Shown here in pieces: positions 4,861 through 52,360 of a DNA stretch of 64,000 nt. Within the stretch, counting starts at the first letter, position 1, and the number at the start of each line of letters is the position of its first letter. The position numbers and the translations under genes are program-made. The notes below the pieces were generated by a model. It was not told the origin of the DNA. It was given only the letters and a program-made list of their open reading frames with translations, and made no database searches. The stretch is taken from contig CM057057.1 of NCBI GenBank assembly GCA_029945375.1, forward strand, positions 4,960,001 through 5,024,000, written 5' to 3'. This DNA is from Agaricus subrufescens (lineage: Eukaryota > Basidiomycota > Agaricomycetes > Agaricales > Agaricaceae).

Positions 4861-7445
4861 GAATACATGTCTAAAGCGTTCCTAGCCTTCACGGAGCAGT
4901 GTGGCATCGATAGGAGGCATTCTACTCGCAACAGGCCTCAGCAGAACGGTCTAGCTGAAAGGGCTAACAGAACTATGGGGGAAAGGATCACTGCAATGCT
5001 CTCTGAGTCGAACTTGCCCCCAAGTTTCTGGGGTGAATGCATCTCCTCTATGGTGCATGTATGGAATAGGCTTCCTACGTTGTCTCTCCCTGGTTCTACA
5101 CCCTTCCAAGCGTTCTATAAGCGAAAACCCGACGTTTCCCACCTCCGGGTATGGGGGTGCACTGCCTACGTGCATATACAGCGAGATAAACGCAATTCTC
5201 TTCAGCCCCACTACGAAAAATGCGTTTTCATAGGCTATCCTACTGGCTACAAGGGCTGGAAGTTCTATAACCCAGTTCAATCATCTCTGAAAGGGCAGAA
5301 TCCGATGAAAGGTACTTTCCTGGCACTTCTAGAGCTCAACTCGATGCTGTTCCTTCATTTGCTGGCCCTCCCAGCTCTCCCGAAACTCCTATCGCTTCAG
5401 AGCCCTCTCCAGCGCTCCCCTCGTCGCATTTCGGCTTCCCACCTCTCCAGGATGAAGGGGGTGGTATCTGGCCTCTCCCTGCACCATCTCCGCTGCCTAG
5501 TTCGACTCCTGCAAGTGATATTCCTCCTGAAGAGTCTAAAGCACCTCAGAATGCTTCTGAAGCTCCTGTGATCGCTCCTGCATCTCCTGTGCTCGCTCCT
5601 GCATCTCCTGTCGCTCCCTCTCCACCTAGAACGCCTCTACAACCTCCTACACCACTCCCTGTCACTCCTCCGACCGCTCCTGTGCCTGCTGAGCCCCCAC
5701 GAGTCCCTAGGCGCACCAATCGAGTTAGACGACCCCCTGGTGAGTGGTGGAGGGTCAAAAACATCGACCTACCTGGAGACAACCCAGAACTGGAAGAGGA
5801 GGCCGCTTTTTTGGTTGACAGTGACTTCTGTGATGTAGAGTTTGCTGGAGCAGTTTCTAATGCAGATCCTCGCTCCTACAGGCTGGCTATGCAGTCCCCT
5901 GATCGCTCTCACTGGCAGGATGCTTGTAACACTGAGATTTTCAATCTGGAGGCCAACAGGACCTGGGAACTCGTTGATTTGCCTCCTGGAAAGAAGGTAG
6001 TCAACTCTGGATGGGTATTCAAGGTTAAAAGGCATGCCGACGGCTCAATTGAGCGCTACAGGGCTCACCTTGTTGCTAAGGGCTTCTCCCAGCGTCCTGG
6101 CTTTGATTACACCGAGGTTTTTGCTCCTACATTTCGCCCTGCCTCCCTGTGCCTCATTGTAGCCTTAGCTGCAAGAGAAGGCTTCAAAATGCGCTCTGTT
6201 GACATCTCTTCTGCCTTTACCTATGGGGAACTTGAAGAGGAGATCTACATGAGACAACCAGAAGGCTACCACACTGGGGGACCTAATATGGTCCTCAGGC
6301 TCCGAAAATCGCTCTATGGCCTTAAGCTGGCTGCCAGGCAATGGAACAAGAAGCTCAGAAGTGTCCTAGAAGGTATTGGCTACACCAGGCTTCACTCCGA
6401 CAACTCTATCTACATTTATTCCAAGGGAGACATCAAGGTCATAGTGCCTGTCTTCATTGATGATATAACTCTGGTGTCAAAAAGCGATTCTGCTGTCTCT
6501 GCTGCTGTCTCTGAGCTGTCTAGCCACTTCAAACTTCGAGATCTCGGGTCTACCACTCTGCTACTGGGTATTCAGGTGAAGCAGGACCGTTCTAAGCGCA
6601 CTATTTCGCTCTCACAAGAGCACTACATCAAGGAGCTGCTAGAACGATTCAATATGGATGATTCCAACTCCCTTTCCACCCCACTTCCACCTGGTTCTGA
6701 GCTCTCCGACATTGTGCCCTCTCTCGAGGAGCAAGCTGAGATGAAGTCAGTTCCTTATCTCTCTGCTGTAGGTGCCCTGCAGTATCTGGCCACCATGACT
6801 CGTCCCGACATCGCTTATGCTGTCTCCTACCTTGGGAGATTCAATCATAGCCCTGCTCCTGCCCATTGGCTTGCAGTGAAGCATTTACTTCGCTATTTGA
6901 AGGGCACCCTGCACTACCAGCTTGTCTACAGAGGTGGTGACTCTGGGGAACTGTTTACCACCTATTCCGACGCCTCTCACAGCGGCTGCAAGGCCACAGG
7001 TCGAGCTACAGGTGGATATGTGACTATTGTCTCTGGTGCTGCTGTGGGCTGGTCCTCAAAGCGTCAGCCTTTTGTGACTCTCTCGAGCACTGAGGCCGAG
7101 TTTGTGGCTGCTGTTGAGGCTGGAAAGGAAATCAAGTGGACCAGGAACATTCTCAGCGAGTTTGGCTACCCCCAGACACTTGCTTCCACTTTATTTGTTG
7201 ATAACAAGTCTGGAATCAGTGTGGCAAAGAATCCTGAGCATCACGGGCGCATGAAACACCTAGATCTTCGGTTCTACTGGCTCTGGGAGGCTGTAGAAGA
7301 AGGAATCATCGATCCACTCTATGTTTCTACTGATCAGCAAGTGGCAGACATTCTGACCAAGGCTGTGGCACCAAAGGTGATTGATTTTGCTGTCCCGCTA
7401 TTGGGACTTGGACACTGGACTGCTTGGATCAAGGGGGTGTGTTAG
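4861..7445 (+). pseudogene. copia polyprotein: integrase C-terminus, reverse transcriptase, RNase H
   Basis: The order is integrase (RPQQNGLAERANRT; WNRLP; FKAFYKRKP-like block), a linker rich in Pro/Ala/Ser, then RT with the FIDD catalytic box (about 6453-6464) and RNase H (SSTEAEFVA). A ~10-base deletion near 5277, relative to the copies at 45740 and 47860, throws the frame in the linker between integrase and RT. From 5568 to the TAG at 7443-7445 the RT/RNase H frame is uninterrupted. The stop codon lies inside the LTR. Pol cannot be made as one protein from this copy, although the RT-RNase H half looks chemically complete. Confidence 0.85.
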
Positions 7446-7756
7446 AATGCCCCAAGCATTCAGTTATTAGAGTGACTGGTTAATTTGTTTTGAGTATATC
7501 TCGACTTAGAGTATAGCGGACGCTTCCGCTCACGTGATAGATTAGTCAGCGCATGTTGAACTTGCCTGTGGACGACTTAGAAGTCTTTAGCTTCTTATAC
7601 TTGTCCACAGGTGAGCAATCTCTTTGTATTGTTGTTTTAGCTTCTTATACTTGTCCACAGATTAACTGTGCTAATACTAGCTCATTTCTTATCCGATCCG
7701 CTCGATACTAGTGTCGTTAGGATCGCCACTGCGAACTCTACGTTCTACTTCCAACA
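7440..7756 (+). repeat. copia LTR, subfamily B (317 bp)
   Basis: It runs TGTTAGAATGCCCC...CTTCCAACA. This is the reference copy for subfamily B, also found at 34028, 34746, 43253, 51119 and 61640. It contains two copies of a GCTTCTTATACTTGTCCACAG block. It is related to LTR-A but clearly diverged from it. Confidence 0.92.
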
Positions 7757-9694: not shown

Positions 9695-9986
9695 CACCGC
9701 TTCTTGATCTGTAACCACCACCTTCCTGTTTAGGATATTGGTGTTGGACGGCATTTAGTAGTGGTAATACACGTTCTACAGGGATAACGCTTGATATCTC
9801 GCGACCCCCTGCGCTCTAGTATGTCTGGGTTACGCAACCAGCCGTACAACCAAGAAGCCATCGTGAGCCGCCCACGTCGCCATCGGGAAGTGTTCGTTCA
9901 CTATATTTAAGCGTCCAAGAAGTCTTCTTTTTTAAAGGACCAAGGACCTAGTGTCAAGAACAGCTGCTCCTAAGAAGAAGAGGAGT
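9695..9986 (+). promoter_or_regulatory. 5' UTR and probable internal promoter of LINE-C
   Basis: The first ~45 bases (CGCTTCTTGA...ACCACCACCTTCCTG) are closely similar to the 5' ends of all the complete half-LINEs here (D, F, H, J, K) and of element N. Conservation of the very start across elements with different contents suggests a promoter or RNA signal. That function is an inference. A TAA in the ORF1 frame at 9933-9935 rules out an earlier ORF1 start. Confidence 0.6.
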
Positions 9987-12815
9987 ATGGCTAGAGAGTT
10001 GAAGGGGATGTTGGCACCTAGTGCCTTCAGAACTTTGGATATGGAGGAAGTTGTACCGACTTCCCAGGAGTCTCAAGACGGACCCGCTCCCAAGGATCCG
10101 TCACTGGATAAGGAGATCGAACCTCAGGAGGAGGTAGAGGAGAGTGAAAGCGAGGGGGAGAGCGATATTGAGGACGATCCGAGGATATTGGAGAGGTTGG
10201 AGAGGGAAAGACTCGAGAAGTTGCACCATGAGGAGGAGGAAGAAGCCCGGGCAACCAACCAGACCTCCAGCGACTGGGGCATCCCCATGCCCACTGGAGA
10301 TGAACTTAGGCATCCTGCCCTCGCTGCTCACCACAGCGAGACCCCCCTACCCTATAAGACTGTCACTCCAGGCGACGTCTTTTCCACCCCCAACTCTGCG
10401 CTTTTAGACCACGAGGCTCTAAAGGCCACGTCAGCCCCCCGCAGCCAATCGGAGAGTTACGGCTTTCCGACACCCGATCCGGCCCTTCTTAGTCATCCGG
10501 CTTTGAAGGTAACCGGTGCCACCCCAGCTAACCCGCCAGACTCCCTCGCCACATCAGCGCCGCCGTCCGGCATCATCGCTCCGGCTCTTAAGACCCGGCA
10601 AATCACACCTCCTTCTCGAGGCCCAATCCCGGACCTCGACAAAACGCCCACGACGCCCAGAATAGTCAAAACTACTGAGGCTCAACTCAATGCCCTTAGG
10701 GCACAGGAGCAAGAGCGGGAATCCTCGCTTGACAGAGTCATTGGGGGCAATACAATTACTGCCACCCAATATTACCTTAACATCGAAGCGGCCAAGAAAT
10801 GCGTCGATGAGATTCCGGAGATGGAGGAAAGACACTCCTCTCCAGCCTTTATAGGAGACGATGGGAGAAAGATACACTTCTACCCAGACGAGTTGGCCAA
10901 TCTTGAGAGGAAATTGTTCGACGTTTTCGGGCCCCTCATCAAAATGGCACCCAACAACTGCTCCAACCCTGGTGTTGTAGCAGAGCTTATCTGCAATGCT
11001 TTCGGGGCGGTCCTTGGCACGGACTGGGCCCATGTCAAGGTTCAAAACAAAGGTTCGCTCAACCATCGGTTGAGCAAATATATCCATGAAATGGACGATG
11101 AGAATAAGAAAGCTCTCCTCCCCATGACCACCACCCCCGCCCAGTCACCCCCTGCTCAACAAGTTTGGGCCCCGGCTCCAACTCCTGCCGCCCCAATGGA
11201 AATCGATCCTGCGCCGGCACTATCCCCAGCATGCATCCCCGCCGCTGCCAAAGGTAAGGGCAAGGCACCCCCTCCCCCTCCCACCCCAGTTCAGCCCCCC
11301 CCGGCTCCCAAACCCATCACTATTGCGGCCTTACCCAAGGCCAACAAGTTCACTCAGATCGCCGCAAACAAGACGGCACACAAGAAAGGTAAGACCCAGC
11401 CTTCCGCTGGTCCATCCAAACCCCGTGAGCTCTACATCCAATTGGAAGAGCCACTCCAAGGCCAGGCTATTCCTCCTCCCATCCCTCTCCACTCCAAGCC
11501 TGCCGCCATCGCCACTCGCAAGCAGAACACTGCTCAACGGATTGCGAACCAATCACGTGCTCCCCCTCCCCCAGCACCTAAACCAACCTCTTACGCTTCA
11601 GCCCTCAAAAAGCCGACCGTCACTGCCCCCAATGTCGCCCCCAATATGCCTTCCCAGGCCATCCAATGGGCGGTCGAACTCAAGAAGTCATTCCCTGAAA
11701 TGAGTGTTCAGGAAGCAATGGCAATATGCGCTCCGTTGGTATACACACCGACGAACTCTACGGCTTCGGCCGGATCATCTGGGTCGGCGTCTAAAGGACG
11801 TAAGCCGACTCTGGCCCAACAGGCCACACAAGGAATCTCGGGTGGACTCAATAGGAAGTCCGCCCAATTTGGCTTCACCCATATCGTTCAGCCAGAGCGA
11901 TTTAATGATATGGGAATCATTGTTGATAAGATGAATAGGTATCTTATCTCTATATCTTCACAACTCCGCGTTCAAAGCGGCCGTCTATTCAAGACGGTCG
12001 TCCATTTCTACCTTAACCTTGTTCCTTCCAAACAGGGTTTCACCAATGTCAAGGAAGCCTTATATAAGGCCCTTGGCCAAGATCTCACCCCAGAGGCGCC
12101 AGATCCACAGGCCCCTCAATCAGTCGCCCATCTCGTCATGACGGGCTTCAACTATTGGACTAATGTGCACAACAGGAGACCGGAGGACGTACTAACCGGT
12201 GCACAGGTCCTTGAAGGCATGAAGTCGGTGGTCCAGTTCAACGACCTCGAAGCCAAAGCCCCGCCCGCCGTTGTCAAATGCAAAGGCTCTAACGACAAAG
12301 CGGTAGTATTCTTAGATGTCTGGGATTCCAAATCAGGCATCATGACCAAGCACCTCGTGAATAAGGTATATCATATTCGAGGACGACTCATTAAACTAGC
12401 GTACGCTCACCAGCGTGAGTTCGTCCCACAGTGTCAAAACTGTTGGCGATGGAATCACGGTACGTCCCGATGTTGCATTAACCACAAGAAATGCGCCAGG
12501 TGTTATCAACCCCACGACACCAAAAACCACGACATCTTCGCTCCTTGCTGCGGAGAACTTAGGAAGAAACCGGAGTGGACAGGTACATGTACTCATGCTC
12601 CGAAATGTGTTAATTGCGGTGGTGCCCACCCTGCCAATCACTCTAACTGTGTCTATAAATGGCACCAAAACAATGAATCCTGGCACGCCCAACGCCGGAT
12701 TGCCGATAATAATGGAGAGAAGACTAAGCACAATAGGCGCAAAGCTAACATCACACAGGCTTTGGAGGTTCCACCTTCTCAGATCATCGAAGTCCCCTCC
12801 TCGTCCGCTGAATGA
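9987..12815 (+). CDS. LINE ORF1 (Gag-like RNA-binding protein with zinc knuckles)
   Basis: This open frame of about 940 codons is intact. The first in-frame ATG is at 9987 (MARELKGMLAP). The N-terminal third is acidic and the middle is very rich in Pro, Ala and Lys. The last third holds the conserved Gag-like region and Cys/His clusters (CQNCWRWNHGTSRC, CARCYQPHDTKNHD, CVNCGGAHPANHSNC), typical of LINE ORF1 proteins that coat the element's RNA. The stop TGA (12813-12815) overlaps the ORF2 ATG (12812-12814) as ATGA. The sequence is distant from the shorter ORF1 of the half-LINEs but has the same layout: Pro-rich middle and C-terminal knuckles. Confidence 0.85.
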   Translation: MARELKGMLAPSAFRTLDMEEVVPTSQESQDGPAPKDPSLDKEIEPQEEVEESESEGESDIEDDPRILERLERERLEKLHHEEEEEARATNQTSSDWGIPMPTGDELRHPALAAHHSETPLPYKTVTPGDVFSTPNSALLDHEALKATSAPRSQSESYGFPTPDPALLSHPALKVTGATPANPPDSLATSAPPSGIIAPALKTRQITPPSRGPIPDLDKTPTTPRIVKTTEAQLNALRAQEQERESSLDRVIGGNTITATQYYLNIEAAKKCVDEIPEMEERHSSPAFIGDDGRKIHFYPDELANLERKLFDVFGPLIKMAPNNCSNPGVVAELICNAFGAVLGTDWAHVKVQNKGSLNHRLSKYIHEMDDENKKALLPMTTTPAQSPPAQQVWAPAPTPAAPMEIDPAPALSPACIPAAAKGKGKAPPPPPTPVQPPPAPKPITIAALPKANKFTQIAANKTAHKKGKTQPSAGPSKPRELYIQLEEPLQGQAIPPPIPLHSKPAAIATRKQNTAQRIANQSRAPPPPAPKPTSYASALKKPTVTAPNVAPNMPSQAIQWAVELKKSFPEMSVQEAMAICAPLVYTPTNSTASAGSSGSASKGRKPTLAQQATQGISGGLNRKSAQFGFTHIVQPERFNDMGIIVDKMNRYLISISSQLRVQSGRLFKTVVHFYLNLVPSKQGFTNVKEALYKALGQDLTPEAPDPQAPQSVAHLVMTGFNYWTNVHNRRPEDVLTGAQVLEGMKSVVQFNDLEAKAPPAVVKCKGSNDKAVVFLDVWDSKSGIMTKHLVNKVYHIRGRLIKLAYAHQREFVPQCQNCWRWNHGTSRCCINHKKCARCYQPHDTKNHDIFAPCCGELRKKPEWTGTCTHAPKCVNCGGAHPANHSNCVYKWHQNNESWHAQRRIADNNGEKTKHNRRKANITQALEVPPSQIIEVPSSSAE

Positions 12816-14402
12816 ATAGCGACGACCACTCTCACTCAAGCGGAAATCGAAAACCCGCACCACACTCGTTAAGTAATCTCACTATTATTTCTTTTAATGC
12901 ACGTAAGAACTGGGAAACCACTTCTACGGTGCTTGACAAATGGGCCGGGTATGTGGACATTATCATGTTCCAGGAACCCGGGTGGAAAGGTGTGCGCAGG
13001 CAACCATCCACCAAAAATAAGTCTGGGGACATGGCCTTCGGCCCCCCTATTCATCCCTCATGGACGCCGTTCACTGAAGCGTTTGATAATACTAACAAGT
13101 CGAGACCCGAGCGAAGGGTTTTGACTTACATAAACAAAAGACTTGACGTTTTCAGACCACAGCTTCGATCTGACGTCATCAAGCACAGAGACGTGTCCTT
13201 AGTCACACTCCACCTCAATCGACCTCGAAACGGCATACCAAACGAGTTCAACATCCTCAACGTGTACAACGACGGCCAATCGCAAGCCGCAGTACACCAA
13301 ATAACAGCAGTAAGTGAAAATTTTCCTAAAATATCACTCTGCGCCGGGGATTTCAATATCCAAGACTGGGAATGGGACAATGGAGCGGCGTCACAAGTAC
13401 GGCCCTCCTCCCCATACATGCGCCTCAAAGATTTATGCACTAACCTTGAAATTCAATACGTGTTCCCCTCTAACAGAGGGGAACCGACTCGAATCCCGGA
13501 TGAACCCAATTCAAGGGCATCTGTAATAGACTTGGTGTTCGCTTCAGCAGGCATTATTAACACACAGGGATTTTATTATGAAATCAAGACCAATGAAGCG
13601 GAATGGTGGGGATCAGATCACCGGCCCCTTCAAATCGAGGTACCCATCTTAGGAGAAGAACCAGAATTAAGAGGGAAATTTAAGATTGAAGCCTTCTCGG
13701 AGGAGGAGAAAGACTACGTCAACATGATAGCCATGGAGCTTGGGAAGCTAGGGCGGAGAGAGGCACCGGGGTCTATGGGAGAACTGGTAGCGATTATGGA
13801 GCAGATGGAAGCAACGTTTGAAAGTGCGTGGTTAAAGTTTGCGGAGGAAAGAAAACCGAGTCGACATGGGAAGAAGTGGTGGAACTCGGAGTGTAAGGAG
13901 GCCTATCAGAGGATGATGAAAAACGGAGGGTCTCGGAATCACATCGAACGGGGCAATCTCAAAAGAACCATTCGAAAAGCTAAACGCGAGCACTTTGACA
14001 AGAAAATCGAAGAAATGGCGACAGACAACAAGCAACCATGGGATCTCATGCCTTGGGTGTGCAAACGCAAATTACCGGCTGTTGAAGCTATTCTAGACAA
14101 CCAAGGACTATCGTGTAACTCCCCCGAGAAGTTATTCGACACTCTCCACTCCACCTACAACTCCGCCAACAATCGTTCTATCAATCTGGAGAAATTCACG
14201 GCGAGCGTAGACAAATTACCGGAAAGAGAATGGCCCCAGTTCTCTATCCAGGAGTTTCACGACGGTCTCAAAGGATGCGCCAAGAACACGGCCCCAGGCC
14301 CGGATCACGTCTCATGGAGGATATGGAAACTGCTCGCATGCAGTGACGCTGTATGTGAGCTAGTGGTTAAGATTGCTAATGCCTGTATCGACCTAGGACA
14401 TT
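12812..14402 (+). pseudogene. LINE ORF2, 5' half: endonuclease and start of reverse transcriptase
   Basis: This is an apurinic-type (EEP) endonuclease: Asn29 in SFNAR, Glu55 in FQEPGW, GDFN at 179-182, VIDLVF near 240 and SDHRPL with His270, so the catalytic set looks complete. The RT domain begins at NTAPGPDHVSW and is cut at 14402 by the KDZ element. The frame then runs about 20 codons into the terminal inverted repeat before a stop. The start at 12812 overlaps the ORF1 stop. The protein resumes at 27831. Confidence 0.9.
14396..14402. other. Target-site duplication of the KDZ element, left copy
   Basis: GGACATT occurs here and again at 27824-27830. The LINE ORF2 frame becomes continuous (...DLGHWPKHF...) if one copy and everything between are removed. 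KDZ-type elements are known for duplications of about 8 bp. Only 7 match exactly here, with an uncertain eighth base. Confidence 0.85.
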
Positions 14403-15665
14403 CACTAGTAGCTGCTATCCATTATCATAAAATATTGGCTACTGCCAATCGAAACTTTTCATAATAACCAATGCACTGAGGCAGAAGAATATTATCATAA
14501 CTCCAATGATTCTTTTCATTATATCTATTGTAGTTCTCATTGGAATGGATTGAAGTTATCATAATGCTATTGCCATCTCATATTGAGCATTTTCATTCCT
14601 AGTTGTTGGATATTTCAATGTATATGAATTGATATTTTCATTGTTGTGAATAAGCCTTTTATTGTTCTCTATAAGCATTTTCATTACTGTTTCATGTTAC
14701 TCTCTTGATTTGGAACTGGCTATTTCATTACTTTTGGAGCTATTTCATTAGATACTATCAGTTGTTTCATTACTATACCACAGCATTTTCAATGTTATAT
14801 ATTGGAACTTTCATGATAGACTATGAATGTTTTCATTAGCAATCTCATTATCATGTATTAGTTATTGAATGTTTCATTACCATCTGATAGTGTTTTCATT
14901 GTTGCATATTGGGATTCTGAATATTTCTATTGACCTTTTTCATTTCCACAACATGGCATGTTCATAGCATATGATAGCATTTTCATTTGCTTTTATTGGC
15001 TTTTTCATTGCCATTTGATAGCATGTTCATTGTTGCATATTGGAATTCTCAATATGTCTACCAGCCTTTTCATTGTTACACTACAACATATTCATTACTA
15101 TGTGCTGTCATTTTCATTTCCTTTTATTGGCTGTTTCATTGCCATTTCATAGCATTTTCATTGTTGTGTATTGGGATTCTCAATATGTCTACCAGCCTTT
15201 TCATTGCTACACTACAGCATATTCATTACCATGTGCTGTCATTTTCATTTCCTGTTATTAGCTGTTTCATTGCCATTTCATAGCATTTTCATTGTTGCAC
15301 ATTGGCATTCTCAATATGTCTACCAGCCTTTTCATTGTTACACTACAGCATGTTCATTACCCTGTGCTGTCATTTTCATTTCCTGTTATTGGCTGTTTCA
15401 TTGCCATTTCATAGCATTTTCATTGTTGCACATTGGGATTTTCAACACCTCTACCACCCTTTTCATTGCTACACTACAGCATATTCATTACCATGTGCTG
15501 TCATTTTCATTTCCTGTTATTGGCTGTTTCATTTCCATTTCATAGCATTTTCATTGTTGCACATTGGCATTCTCAATATTTCTATTAGCCTTTTCATTGC
15601 TATATTACAGCATATTCATTACCTTTCATTTCCTGTTATTGGCTGTTTCATTTCCATTGATAGCA
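14403..15665 (+). repeat. KDZ terminal inverted repeat, left
   Basis: This 1.26-kb arm is inverted relative to 26694-27823. The outermost ~100 bp match nearly base for base (for example CTGCCTCAGTGCATTGG in the right arm against its complement at the left). The inner part consists of 131-bp units. The left arm carries one unit more than the right within the paired region, and about two and a half extra units beyond it. Confidence 0.88.
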
Positions 15666-15990
15666 TTTTCATTGTTGCACATTGGGGTTCTCAATATTTC
15701 TATCAGCCTTTTCATTGTTACACTACAACATATTCATTACCATGTGCTGTCATTTTCATTTCCTGTTATTGGCTGTTTCATTTCCATTTCATAGCATTTT
15801 CATTGTTGCACATTGGCATTCTCAATACCTCTACCAGCCTTTTCATTGTTACACTACAGCATGTTCATTACCCTGTGCTGTCATTTTCATTTCCTGTTAT
15901 TGGCTGTTTCATTGCCATTTCATAGCATTTTCATTGTTGTGTATTGGGATTCTCAATATTCATTGCTACACTACAGCATATTCATTACCA
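14985..15990 (+). repeat. 131-bp tandem repeat array in the left arm
   Basis: There are about seven to eight copies of a 131-bp unit containing TTTCATAGCATTTTCATTG, AGCCTTTTCATTG and TGTGCTGTCATTTTCATTTC, plus one shortened copy of about 118 bp near 15600. CATTTTCATT is itself repeated within each unit. 131 is not a multiple of three, so the overlapping hydrophobic open frames seen here rotate with the repeat and are not genes. Confidence 0.9.
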
Positions 15991-16084
15991 TGGATTGTAA
16001 ATCTCATTTTAGATGGGGGCTTTGATAATGCAACTCAATAATAGGCAATTTCATTAACACTCATAGGGTTTTCAATAGTAACAT

Positions 16085-34745: not shown

Positions 34746-34893
34746 TGTTGGAAGTAGAACGTAGAGTTCGCAGTGGCGATCCTAACGACACTAGTATCAA
34801 GCGGATCGGATAAGAAATGAGCTAGTATTAGCACAGTTAATCTGTGGACAAGTATAAGAAGCTAAAACAACAATACAAAGAGATTGCTCACCT

Positions 34894-35144
34894 TGTCAGG
34901 TGATGACAGGTCAAGTCATCTGACAGCTTTGGAGCTCTGAGTTCTCACAAGAAACTGCCTAGTGCCCCAGCCCCTGGAGTGGGCCTGCAGTAGTGAGTTC
35001 CAACTCTAGGCCTAGGGTACATATATATGTATAATATCCTAGCTCCTATAATACCAAGACCATGTAGCTCAGTGGTTAGAGCTCCCTGGTGCAATTGGGG
35101 TGGTCCCAGGTTACCCTGGTGTGGTCGGCTTTCACGTCCCAACA
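34894..35144 (+). mobile_element. TG...CA element carrying a tRNA-like gene, copy 1 (251 bp)
   Basis: It starts TGTCAGGTGATG and ends CGTCCCAACA. It is the reverse orientation of the copy at 51280-51528, with high identity, and is inserted in the LTR-B of cop3. The expected 5-bp duplication is only partly kept (CACCT at left, CATT at right). It contains TATATATGTATAATA just before the tRNA-like gene. Confidence 0.8.
35058..35126 (+). pseudogene. tRNA-Cys(GCA)-like sequence, damaged T-arm
   Basis: It has the same 5' half as the intact copy at 51297-51368 (box A TAGCTCAGTGG), but three bases of the T-loop are lost (CCAGGTTACCCTGG in place of a 7-nt loop). Box B and folding are broken. It is probably inactive. 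Confidence 0.75.
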
Positions 35145-35321
35145 CATTGTGGACAAGTATAAGAGCTAAAAGACTTCCTAAGTCGTCACAGGCAAGTTCA
35201 ACATGTGCTGACTAATTCTACCACGTGAGCGGAAGCGTCTGCTATACTCTGAAGTCGAGATATACTCAAAACAAATTAACCGGTCACTCTAATAACTGAA
35301 AATGCTTGGGGCATTCTAACA

Positions 35322-49212: not shown

Positions 49213-51097
49213 CATCCCTTCTTGAACTGCTACCACCACCTTCCTCTTTTGGAAGTCTCAGTGGAAGTGCTTGAGTAGGAATATACTGCGTCTACAGCGT
49301 TCGCTATGGATACCAGAGAGGATTTTGATAACGGAGGGTGGTCTACGGACAACGATGCGCCACTCCCCGAGGTTCTACAGGCCGTGGTCCTCAAAACACC
49401 GCAAACCCCCAAGGCAACTCGTCTCGAGAAGATGAAGTCTCATTTATGGTCCAAAGGCAAGTTAACTGATGCTGTTTGGGCTGAAGCCACCACCCCCACA
49501 CCTGCTGGCCCTTTGCAAGCGTCGGCAATGACCCCGTTGTCGTATGCGTCTCGGAGCCCGCACACACCTGGTAACCCCCCAGCTACCCCCTCCTGTGCTT
49601 CTTCAATCTTCTCACCCTCTGCAGTACCTGGAAAGAAGAACTGACTTGCATCCATGTTGGCCACAGCATCTGACATGGTCCGCTCCACTTCCCCAGACAA
49701 GGACTATGTGGCATATGCCTTGGAGCTCTTGATTCTGATTTTCAACCTCCTCAACTCCCCTGCCTACAAGCAGATGGAGTTCCAAAACATGACCGGCTCG
49801 ACCTCATTTCACTACTCATGGTGCGTCTCGCAAAGGTGTCCACATCACTCCCCCAGCTGGATCTAGTATCTGTGCTATTAATATCACTCCAGAAGTCCTG
49901 CTGGAGTGTAACTGCCACCTTAAGGACGATCTCAAATCCGAGGTCATTCTCAAGAGTTCTATCGACTCAGGGACTGGCATCTTCATTGCTGCTTCCCGGG
50001 TATTATCCCATCCCGAATCTGCATGCGTGCTTAGGCACATTTGCTGCCTCGTCGACCCCAACAGCCTCATCCCTCTCCAGGCTGCCACTCCCACATCCAT
50101 GTCCTATCTTAAAGTGATAGACATACCTCTCATCCCGGCTCCCCCTGCCTCATGGATCGTCGCGCAGTGCACCACCTTCGTCGCTGCTATGCAAAAATCA
50201 CCGATTGGACAATCTCTTGCCCGACACATCAAGCACACAGTCTGGTTTATGCAGACTTCAAAACATTCAGACACCTGCGTTGCGTGGGTGGACATTCAAG
50301 ATTCTGTCTTGGGCCGTATGGCCCACGACTTCATCGGTAAGCACGTCCTCATTGGAGGGCGTAACTGTCAAATCCAAGGCACTGCCCCCCGGCCCGGCTC
50401 CATCCTCTGCACTCACTGCCAGAGGTGGGGTCATCATGCTGACGTATGCCGCTCTAAGGGCATATGGTGTCCACATTGCGCGGGTCTGCATACTGCCAAC
50501 TCGCATATTCAGGCCACGATTGCCATGAAGTGCAATCCCGATGACTGCCATTGTGCCAACTGTTCCGCAAGCAAGAAGAAGAAGATGGTGCACTCCACAA
50601 CAGACACCTCGTGTCCGTTCTGGGTCAACAGATTCGACCGGGACTGGCTTTGTCGCCAGTTCACATTGAAGTAGTAATCGGCTGTCATGGTTGTTTTTGG
50701 GACCTTGTGTTATCTGGACCCTCAATTTTCTTTCGCTTCAACGTTTGCGATGAACACCGCTGGTCATCATGCTGGTAGACACAGAGCTTGGGTTTGCGGG
50801 GATGTTTGCTTGAGCTAAGGCTCGTTTCAGTCTGTACCATCTTTGCTTCATTATCTTGATTCATATGTTTTGTGTTTGTGTTTGGGTTCCTCGAGTGCTT
50901 GACCTTGTTGCATGGATACGTTTCTTTCCTGCCCATGTATGAGTTTGATTTTGTATGTGTCTGGCAGCTGCACCTGGATACACGTGAAGGCATCCGTATT
51001 AGACTAGTAAGCCCGGAGTATCTAACCGGATGTCGTATAGCTAGTTTAATAGAAGGTCCACCGAGAGGTGCCATTGATTAAAAAAACAAAAAAAAAA
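49213..51097 (+). mobile_element. Half-LINE H with internal deletion
   Basis: The 5' end is CATCCCTTCTTGAAC...CCACCACCTTCCTC. The 3' tail is TTGATTAAAAAAACAAAAAAA, followed by the 14-bp target duplication ACTGCTTGGATCAA. It is inserted between the cop5 pol stop and the 3' LTR. Confidence 0.88.
49306..50674 (+). pseudogene. Half-LINE H ORF1
   Basis: It starts at ATG 49306 (MDTREDFDNGGW). A TGA at 49642-49644 (PGKKN-stop-LAS) replaces an Arg codon. A deletion near 49817 joins the Gag-like segment (EFQNMTGSTSF) directly to GASRKGVHITPPAGS, removing the basic Pro-rich middle. The C-terminal part with CTHCQRWGHHADVC and CHCANCSA is open to the stop at 50672-50674. Confidence 0.83.
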
Positions 51098-51290
51098 ACT
51101 GCTTGGATCAAGGGGGTGTGTTAGAATGCCCCAAGCATTCAGTTATTAGAGTGACTGGTTAATTTGTTTTGAGTATATCTCGACTTAGAGTACAACGGAC
51201 GGTTCTGCTCACGTGATAGATTAGTCAGCGCATGTTGAACTTGCCTGTGGACGACTTAGAAGTCTTTAGCTTCTTATACTGTTAGGATGG

Positions 51291-51294
51291 AAAA
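51291..51294 (-). terminator. Pol III terminator TTTT of the tRNA-like gene
   Basis: Four T residues on the minus strand lie two bases beyond the 3' end of the tRNA, still inside the element. Confidence 0.65.
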
Positions 51295-51296
51295 GT

Positions 51297-51368
51297 GACC
51301 ACACCAGGGTTTGAACCTGGGACCACCCCAATTGCACCAGGGAGCTCTAACCACTGAGCTACATGGTC
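51297..51368 (-). tRNA. tRNA-Cys(GCA)-like gene inside a mobile element
   Basis: This 72-nt minus-strand sequence folds as a canonical cloverleaf: acceptor GACCATG/TGTGGTC (7 pairs, two G-U), D-arm GCTC/GAGC with an 8-nt loop, anticodon arm CCCTG/TGGGG with loop GTGCAAT (anticodon GCA), a 5-nt variable loop, and T-arm CCAGG/CCTGG with loop TTCAAAC. Box A (TAGCTCAGTGG) and box B (GGTTCAAACCC) match the Pol III consensus. A TTTT terminator follows two bases downstream. Whether it is charged with cysteine is unknown; it may serve mainly as a promoter for the element. Confidence 0.82.
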
Positions 51369-51710
51369 TTGGTATTGTAGGAGCTAGGATATTATATATA
51401 TGTACCCTAGGCCTAGAGTTGGAACTCACTACTGCAGGCCCACTCCAGGGGCTGGGGCACTAGGCAGTTTTTCGTGAAAACTCAGAGCTCCAAAGCTGTC
51501 AGATGACTTGACCTGTCATCACCTGACATATACTTGTCCACAGGTGAGCAATCTCTTTGTATTGTTGTTAAAGCTTCTTATACTTGTCCACAGATTAACT
51601 GTGCTAATACGTACTAGCTCATTTCTTATCTGATCCGCTTGATACTAGCATCATTAGAATTGCCACTGCAAACTCTACATTCTCGTTCCAACAGTAACTA
51701 GCTCCTTGTT

Positions 51711-52360
51711 TTTTTTTTTTTTTTTTTTATAATCAACGGCACCTCTCAGTGGACCTTTTATTAAACTAGCTATTTGACATCTGGTTAGATACTCTGGGCT
51801 TACTAGTCTAATATGGATGCCATAATGCGTATCCAAGTGCGGCCGCCAGACACATACAAAATTGAACTCTTACATGGGCAGGAAAGAAACATATCTGCAC
51901 GACGAGGTCAAGCACTCAAAGAACCCAAACCACAAACACACATACCAAAAGAAAAAAGATGATGAAGCAAAGAAATCTACAGACCGTGATGAGCGATGCT
52001 CAAGCCAACATCCCCATAGTACTCCACCCTGTATACACCAGCCTCCGACCAGCGGTTCCAAACGTGAACGATATAGTGATAAAGTGAATGGAAATTGTGG
52101 GCGCGCTTGCTGCAGCTCCCGAAACTGACCACGACAGACGATTACTACTTCGATGTGAACTGGCGTTGGAGCCAGTCCCGGTCAAACCTATTGGACCAGA
52201 ACGGACATGAAGTGTCCGTTGTGGAGTGTGCCGTCTTCTTCTTCTTGCTTGCAGAACAATTGGCGCAGTGGCGGTCATCGGGATTGCGCTTCATAGCAAT
52301 CGCAGCCTGAACGTGCGAGTCGGCAGTGTGTGAACCCGCGCAGTGTGGACAGCATATACC
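51711..52360 (-). mobile_element. Half-LINE I, 5'-truncated (650 bp)
   Basis: It has an 18- to 20-base T tract, the 3' UTR and the last ~75 codons of ORF1 (CPHCAGSHTADSH to FDRDWLQRQF). TAACTAGCTCCTTGTT flanks both sides (51695-51710, 52361-52376). 5' truncation is the usual outcome of incomplete target-primed reverse transcription. It is the only half-LINE here truncated in that way. Confidence 0.85.

What the first reader, a model, noticed from the sequence alone, without database searches (positions are those of the whole stretch)
51280..51528. A ~250-bp LTR-like mobile element that carries a complete tRNA-Cys(GCA)-like gene
Seen: termini TGTTAGG...CCTGACA, a perfect 5-bp duplication TATAC, and inside it a 72-nt canonical cloverleaf with intact A and B boxes and a TTTT terminator. 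A second copy (34894-35144) is damaged in the T-arm and sits in a different copia LTR. Known: Cassandra elements of plants carry a 5S RNA gene in their LTRs. By analogy this could be a fungal terminal-repeat retrotransposon in miniature (TRIM) that brings its own Pol III promoter. I do not know of this exact arrangement in basidiomycetes, but I cannot rule out earlier reports.
Basis: partly seen in the sequence, partly recalled or inferred. Interest (0 to 1): 0.88.

Follow-up and report, generated by a model that had tools for sequence, protein, structure and literature searches.

The report
Solo-LTR-like repeat carrying a tRNA-like gene
A mushroom genome carries about forty copies of a very young 249-base mobile repeat with a tRNA-like gene inside it; this kind of element was described in 2024 under the name Helenus, so it looks like a new family of a known kind, seen here only as single units.

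Summary
Window 51280-51528 is a 249-bp unit (TGTTAGG...CCTGACA) inside a perfect 5-bp duplication, with a tRNA-Cys(GCA)-like gene on the minus strand (Rfam 52.4 bits). The 44.65-Mb genome holds 40 loci of it. Of 30 two-ended units tested, 19 have perfect 5-bp duplications; for 22 of 31 junctions an uninterrupted target relative is held. Six distinct sites carry identical 249-bp units, so the family moved recently. No same-orientation pair lies within 14 kb except one unit split by a LINE-like insert, and no internal sequence abuts the units: the full form (LTR-internal-LTR) was not found. Best reading: solo LTRs of a Copia-mobilised TRIM with a Pol III promoter, the type Kojima described in 2024 as Helenus (fungi included, 5-bp duplications, some families solo-only). 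A working tRNA-Cys is unlikely: the discriminator base is A where the host tRNA-Cys has T. Two extras, for which I made no literature search: near-total CpG loss in a young family, and five of five clean insertions of other elements falling in the tRNA-like part (post hoc). New member of a known kind; membership provisional.

The parts
51280..51528 (-). 249-bp LTR-like unit; strand given as that of its tRNA-like part
   Evidence: 40 loci in the genome; the two-ended ones are 93-100% identical to this copy
51275..51279 (.). target-site duplication TATAC, left
   Evidence: uninterrupted site with one TATAC in the Copia LTR at 7451-7746
51529..51533 (.). target-site duplication TATAC, right
51296..51368 (-). 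tRNA-Cys(GCA)-like gene, 73 nt with A73
51351..51361 (-). A box TAGCTCAGTGG
   Evidence: sequence; box motifs recalled and as quoted in PMC10886601
51307..51317 (-). B box GGTTCAAACCC
   Evidence: sequence
51291..51294 (-). TTTT, possible weak Pol III terminator, 1 nt after A73
51280..51290 (-). 11 bp between TTTT and the end of the unit; U5 in the inferred model
   Evidence: role inferred
51369..51528 (-). 160 bp upstream of the tRNA-like part; U3 in the inferred model
   Evidence: role inferred
51119..51693 (+). host Copia LTR interrupted by the unit
34894..35144 (+). second, older copy (93%), tRNA part on +, T arm damaged
34889..34893 (.). remnant of the second copy's duplication (CACCT = AGGTG); partner CATT at 35145-35148
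34746..35321 (-). host Copia LTR holding the second copy (same LTR family as 51119-51693)

Best explanation
The unit is a solo LTR of a short non-autonomous LTR retrotransposon (TRIM) whose LTR carries a tRNA-derived Pol III promoter, the Helenus type. Shown: LTR-type ends, 5-bp duplications, dispersed recent insertion, intact A and B boxes. Inferred: Pol III starts at the tRNA-like part of the 5' LTR, reads through the weak T4 and the internal region, and stops at the same T4 in the 3' LTR, so that the tRNA-like part is the terminal repeat R needed for strand transfer; a Copia element supplies RT and integrase; LTR-LTR recombination then removes the internal region and leaves one 249-bp unit. 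The tRNA-like part serves as promoter (and R), not as a working tRNA-Cys.
For: TG...CA ends and perfect 5-bp duplications in 19 of 30 two-ended units tested (16 after dropping three duplicate loci); uninterrupted target relatives for 22 of 31 junctions, 18 of them aligning without a gap when one copy of the 5 bp is kept, some with a base change in it. 7 of 31 aligned rows are identical to the majority sequence, at six distinct sites. Several targets are Copia LTRs or frames with a Copia RT domain. The T-run is 4 nt, whereas 24 of 27 nuclear tRNA 3' flanks examined contain a run of 5 or more within 30 nt (some of these genes are duplicates, and three of the 24 have a T4 first). Published precedent with the same anatomy in fungi, Copia dependence, 5-bp duplications and solo-only families. 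The first ten bases TGTTAGGATG differ by one from the host Copia LTR's TGTTAGAATG (weak).
Against: No paired units: 41 rows in the genome, and the only same-orientation pair under 14 kb is one unit split by a LINE-like insert. No sequence is shared next to the units at 34 upstream and 36 downstream junctions except in duplicated or recombined loci and two insertions in the same Copia LTR. A Copia LTR family of the same genome does show same-orientation pairs (6 within 11 kb among the 40 scored of 279 candidates), so finding none among 16-30 insertions is mildly unusual (0.085 to 0.010 under a 14% rate; below 0.001 under the 37% rate that I derive from the paper's counts for one rust family). 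Eight of 30 two-ended units have no recognisable duplication. Orientation of the LTR is unknown; the Copia end similarity would put the tRNA-like part in antisense.
Confidence: 0.75

Rival explanations
1. The 249-bp unit is itself the transposon: a MITE-like DNA element moved in trans by an integrase-like transposase with TG...CA ends, so no paired form ever existed.
For: Explains why all 40 loci found are single units although six distinct sites are identical; DNA transposons with integrase-type transposases and similar termini exist, with 5-bp duplications in TDD-4/TDD-5 (passages of PMC2836005).
Against: Terminal inverted repeat is only 7 bp and imperfect (TGTTAGG / TGTCAGG), whereas Ginger elements have 40-270 or 50-180 bp repeats and 4-bp CCGG/CCGT or AT-rich targets; here the duplicated 5-mers differ from site to site. 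A close published LTR precedent exists.
Confidence: 0.12
2. A SINE: a tRNA-headed element inserted by a LINE.
For: tRNA-like part with A and B boxes.
Against: TG...CA ends at both sides, 5-bp duplications, no tail, tRNA part 160 bp inside the unit in tRNA sense.
Confidence: 0.02
3. A host tRNA-Cys gene family spread by a mobile element that supplies working tRNA-Cys to the cell.
For: Rfam score 52.4 lies inside the range of the 63 tRNA matches listed (49.5-69.4 bits); fewer substitutions in the tRNA part (5 of 2117 sites x rows against 38 of 5104, p=0.011).
Against: A73 where the host tRNA-Cys (C9:1536387, by the Rfam boundaries) has T73 (U73 as a Cys identity element is recalled); the MFE fold is not a cloverleaf, z -1.1, 28 of 200 shuffles as stable; counted by distinct sites the deficit is not significant (4 of 73 against 22 of 176, p=0.11). 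PMC10886601 also judges Helenus tRNAs mostly non-functional.
Confidence: 0.06
4. Solo LTRs of an ordinary autonomous LTR retrotransposon, now lost, into whose LTR a tRNA gene fell by chance.
For: Only single units are seen.
Against: A whole autonomous family would have had to lose every internal region although copies are identical; the tRNA region is unchanged over 80 of 80 bases in 25 of 38 matched rows, and the published pattern favours a working promoter.
Confidence: 0.05

Closest known systems
Helenus (Kojima 2024, PMC10886601; TRIMs with a tRNA-derived sequence in the LTR, part of TRIMp3)
   Same: tRNA-like sequence with A and B boxes inside an LTR-type unit, 5-bp duplications in fungi, basidiomycete hosts incl. 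Agaricaceae, short units, non-functional-looking tRNA, some families solo-only
   Different: No paired form, primer site or purine tract found here; the tRNA part reads as Cys(GCA) (the paper's Table 2 lists Thr, Ser, Ala, Pro, Val, Sup); near-total CpG loss is not mentioned in the parts of the paper that I read
Cassandra (TRIM with 5S rRNA sequence in the LTR, plants)
   Same: Pol III gene inside the LTR, used as promoter, transcript redundant at both ends (as described in PMC10886601)
   Different: 5S, not tRNA; plants; paired LTRs known
Ginger2/TDD DNA transposons (PMC2836005, passages)
   Same: LTR-like termini; TDD-4/5 give 5-bp duplications
   Different: Long inverted repeats and a transposase gene; none of that in the unit
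tRNA-headed SINEs (recalled)
   Same: tRNA-derived Pol III promoter
   Different: Integration signature differs

Membership tests
Helenus | tRNA-derived sequence with A and B boxes inside the LTR | tested here: met
Helenus | 5-bp target-site duplications (fungal families) | tested here: met
   19 of 30 two-ended units perfect; empty sites
Helenus | Two LTRs flanking a short internal region | tested here: not met
   but the paper accepts families with no full-length copies
Helenus | Primer-binding site and polypurine tract next to the LTRs | tested here: not met
   no shared internal sequence at 34 + 36 junctions
Helenus | Mobilised by Copia | tested here: inconclusive
   5-bp duplications and similar first ten bases only; frames with Copia domains are present in the window
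Helenus | Sequence similarity to a published Helenus family | not testable with these tools
Solo LTR | TG...CA ends and 4-6 bp duplication around a single unit | tested here: met
SINE | LINE-type integration (variable long duplications, tail) | tested here: not met
Ginger-type DNA transposon / MITE | long terminal inverted repeats | tested here: not met
   7-bp imperfect repeat
Functional tRNA-Cys gene | U73 discriminator and clean anticodon stem | tested here: not met
   A73, two G-U pairs; host tRNA-Cys has T73

The most novel reading that the evidence does not exclude
The 249-bp unit moves as a single LTR-like unit and never passes through a paired LTR-internal-LTR genomic form: an integrase takes a lone LTR-ended DNA made from, or primed by, a Pol III-associated transcript. 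This would explain 40 loci, all single, with six distinct sites identical.
Probability: 0.06. Interest if true: 0.75.

Novelty: new member of a known kind. Interest (0 to 1): 0.33.

Why it matters
It adds a very young tRNA-bearing LTR family in an Agaricaceae-like mushroom; the published list names three Agaricomycete species. Identical copies at known empty sites allow a test of whether Pol III drives such elements; the family has lost almost all CpG yet moved recently, so it can show how a Pol III promoter fares in a genome that probably methylates repeats; and the elements seen to land in it landed in the tRNA part, which may mark Pol III-opened chromatin. It also warns annotators: 24 of the 63 tRNA matches listed for this genome are copies of this repeat.

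Tried and rejected
Full TRIM: searched with the 249-bp unit (40 of 42 candidates scored), a 149-bp part without the tRNA (37 of 37 scored) and the 80-bp tRNA region (38 of 38); no pair. Junction comparison for a shared internal region: none; flanks run on past the junction in other sequences for 32 of 34 upstream and 30 of 36 downstream flanks. That test miscounts L012 downstream, because its target itself contains CACCTGA.

Unit with a 2-kb insert (L091): first looked like a pair 2 kb apart; it is one unit split by a poly-A-ended insert with a 16-bp duplication. I call it LINE-like from these signs; no family search was run on it.

Copia LTR as a control for solo formation: the first query included 19 bp of internal sequence and so favoured 3' LTRs; repeated with the LTR alone. 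Only 40 of 279 candidates were scored, so its pair count is a lower bound; the 14% rate used was set before the pair list was printed (6 pairs within 11 kb, 4 within 7 kb).

A degenerate A-box pattern for a host tRNA-Cys found nothing; the host tRNA-Cys came from the Rfam search, which scored 63 of 1614 candidates, so other host tRNA-Cys genes and other tRNA-bearing repeats may exist unseen. A DNA search at E<=10 with the tRNA region found no host tRNA gene.

Species: not identified. Two window proteins were searched; their named relatives are mainly Agaricus bisporus and, for the Copia RT, Leucocoprinus birnbaumii at the top (only the candidates sharing most words were scored). Viral contigs: no match to one 21-base piece. 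Six of the 10 allowed paper searches were answered. PMC10886601: abstract, introduction, start of the methods, results, discussion, legends and tables read; PMC2836005: passages only; other papers: search listings only.

Selection on the tRNA part: p=0.011 by substitutions, p=0.11 by distinct sites (L030 and L099 dropped as old copies, L029's missing first 18 bases kept in the denominator), so not claimed.

Full report
Observation. The window is G000:C1:4960001-5024000 of a 44.65-Mb genome in 44 contigs. At 51280-51528 a 249-bp unit begins TGTTAGG and ends CCTGACA, between two copies of TATAC. ARAGORN and Rfam find a tRNA on its minus strand, with A box, B box and, one base after A73, a TTTT. 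The unit splits a Copia LTR (51119-51693). A second copy at 34894-35144 splits another LTR of the same family about 13 bp away, with its own worn duplication.

Copies. The 249-bp query gives 40 matches (40 of 42 candidates scored); the 149-bp part without the tRNA gives 37 (37 of 37); the tRNA region gives 38 (38 of 38), adding one fragment. That is 41 rows and, merging the two halves of L091, 40 loci. I aligned 31 of them (L001-L030 and L099): 7 equal the majority sequence, and since L003 and L006 are one duplicated locus these are six distinct sites. Three locus pairs are duplicates with the same duplication and flanks (L003/L006, L016/L021, L018/L025), and L011/L099 share their flanks.

Integration signature. 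Thirty two-ended units were tested (L001-L028, L030, L091; L099 was not). Nineteen have a perfect 5-bp duplication, sixteen after dropping duplicates, and the 5-mers differ. For 22 of 31 junction rows an uninterrupted relative of the target exists among the window and the fetched flanks. In 18 of these one copy of the 5 bp aligns without a gap, in some with a base change; L015 and L022 show 5 extra bases, L030 shows 4, and L004 has lost 8 bp. Nine rows have no such relative. Eight two-ended units lack any recognisable duplication (L004, L008, L011, L014, L020, L023, L027, L028); L004 shares its upstream flank with L028 and its downstream flank with L020, as expected from recombination between copies. 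This is the signature of a retroviral-type integrase, not of a LINE.

No paired form. Among the 41 rows the only same-orientation neighbours under 14 kb are the halves of L091, one unit split by a poly-A-ended, LINE-like insert with a 16-bp duplication. At 34 upstream and 36 downstream junctions the only sequences shared (11 of 15 bases or more) are those of the duplicated loci, of L004 with L028 and L020, and of L030 with L094, which sit in the same Copia LTR; 32 of 34 and 30 of 36 flanks match sequences that run on past the junction. So neither primer site nor purine tract is visible. A Copia LTR family of the same genome shows 6 same-orientation pairs within 11 kb among 40 scored of 279 candidates. 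With a 14% rate, none in 16, 25 or 30 insertions has probability 0.085, 0.021 or 0.010; with the 37% full-length rate that I derive from the paper's counts for LTR-1_PTrit (529 LTRs, 144 internal portions) it is below 0.001. This is unusual but not decisive: short internal regions may recombine away easily (inference), and the paper reports families without full-length copies.

The tRNA-like part. Against the tRNAs found in 30 host loci its best identity is 66%, to Ile and to a mitochondrial-contig Asp, then Val and Gln; Cys is not among the best 14. The one nuclear tRNA-Cys seen has T73 by the Rfam boundaries; the unit has A73. The minimum-energy fold is not a cloverleaf. Its Rfam score lies within the range of the listed matches. 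A promoter role fits better than a tRNA role.

CpG. The unit holds 1 CpG against 15.4 expected; its tRNA part holds none, while the 26 nuclear tRNA genes counted (introns included) hold 3-8 each; the Copia LTR at 7440-7756 is at 1.02 of expectation and the window at 0.69. The one CpG is changed in 11 of the 31 aligned rows. As the copies are young, the loss happened in the source lineage: it either lived long in methylated DNA or is selected against CpG (inference). Against uniqueness: 148 of 2551 windows of 249 bp in this region have at most one CpG, at least 56 of them from one repeat near 14400-16020.

Insertions into the unit. Five copies are interrupted at a clean end of another element: a poly-A end at position 19 (L029), the insert at 74-89 (L091), Copia-LTR-like ends at 62 (L097), about 52 (L098) and 70 (L100). 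All five lie in the tRNA part, 73 of 249 bases (p=0.002 by length, post hoc); with all ten breakpoints seen it is 6 of 10 (p=0.043). If real, it suggests that the Pol III promoter keeps this stretch open (inference).

Comparison. Kojima 2024 (PMC10886601; abstract, introduction, results, discussion, legends and tables read) named TRIMs with tRNA-derived sequence in their LTRs Helenus. [quoted passage not shown] The unit here fits this, except that the paired form was looked for and not found. I therefore call it a provisional Helenus-type solo-LTR family. Whether this very family is in Repbase could not be tested. Searches for other reports; only this paper in those listings describes a tRNA-like sequence in a TRIM's LTR, judged from titles and the abstract starts shown.

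Mechanism. In tRNA sense the unit reads 160 bp, tRNA-like part, C, TTTT, 11 bp. If Pol III starts at the tRNA-like part of the 5' LTR, passes the T4 (24 of 27 host tRNA 3' flanks have a run of at least 5 within 30 nt) and stops at the T4 of the 3' LTR, the RNA would carry the tRNA-like part at both ends as R, with a U5 of 11 bp. This is inferred; orientation and terminator strength are untested.

Noticed in passing
L029:1500, L091:580-2915, L097:558, L098:530, L100 (unit positions 19, 74-89, 62, ~52, 70): All five clean insertions of a LINE-like or Copia element into the unit fall in its tRNA-like part; post hoc, p=0.002; all ten breakpoints 6 of 10, p=0.043.
   Followed up: partly
window 51280-51528 and copies: 1 CpG where 15.4 are expected, in a family with identical young copies.
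   Followed up: partly
window 51497-51528: Subterminal near-palindrome TGTCAG...CTGACA at the end of the unit away from the tRNA part.
   Followed up: no
window 14450-16020: Stretch of about 1.6 kb, T-rich, without CpG in the 249-bp windows listed, with a recurring TTTTCATT-like motif in the 300 bases looked at.
   Followed up: no
window 50880-51098 and 51712-51930: Inverted 219-bp arms (87%) that end in poly-A and poly-T on the two sides of the interrupted Copia LTR; look like LINE 3' ends facing each other.
   Followed up: no
G000:C8:580738-599359 and C13:1250064-1268663: Two ~19-kb stretches with three units each in the same order and spacing and matching flanks: probably a duplication.
   Followed up: partly
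window 9936-12815 +: 959-aa open frame without Pfam match whose 18 relatives at E<=1e-10 are all named from Agaricus bisporus; one is called Gag-like protein.
   Followed up: partly
G000 genome-wide: 70 exon matches to the Peroxidase_2 family PF01328, many on C3 and C4.
   Followed up: no
L001, L007, L009, L030, L094: Five units sit in the same Copia LTR family at different positions; the LTR is abundant (279 first-look candidates), so this may be chance.
   Followed up: partly
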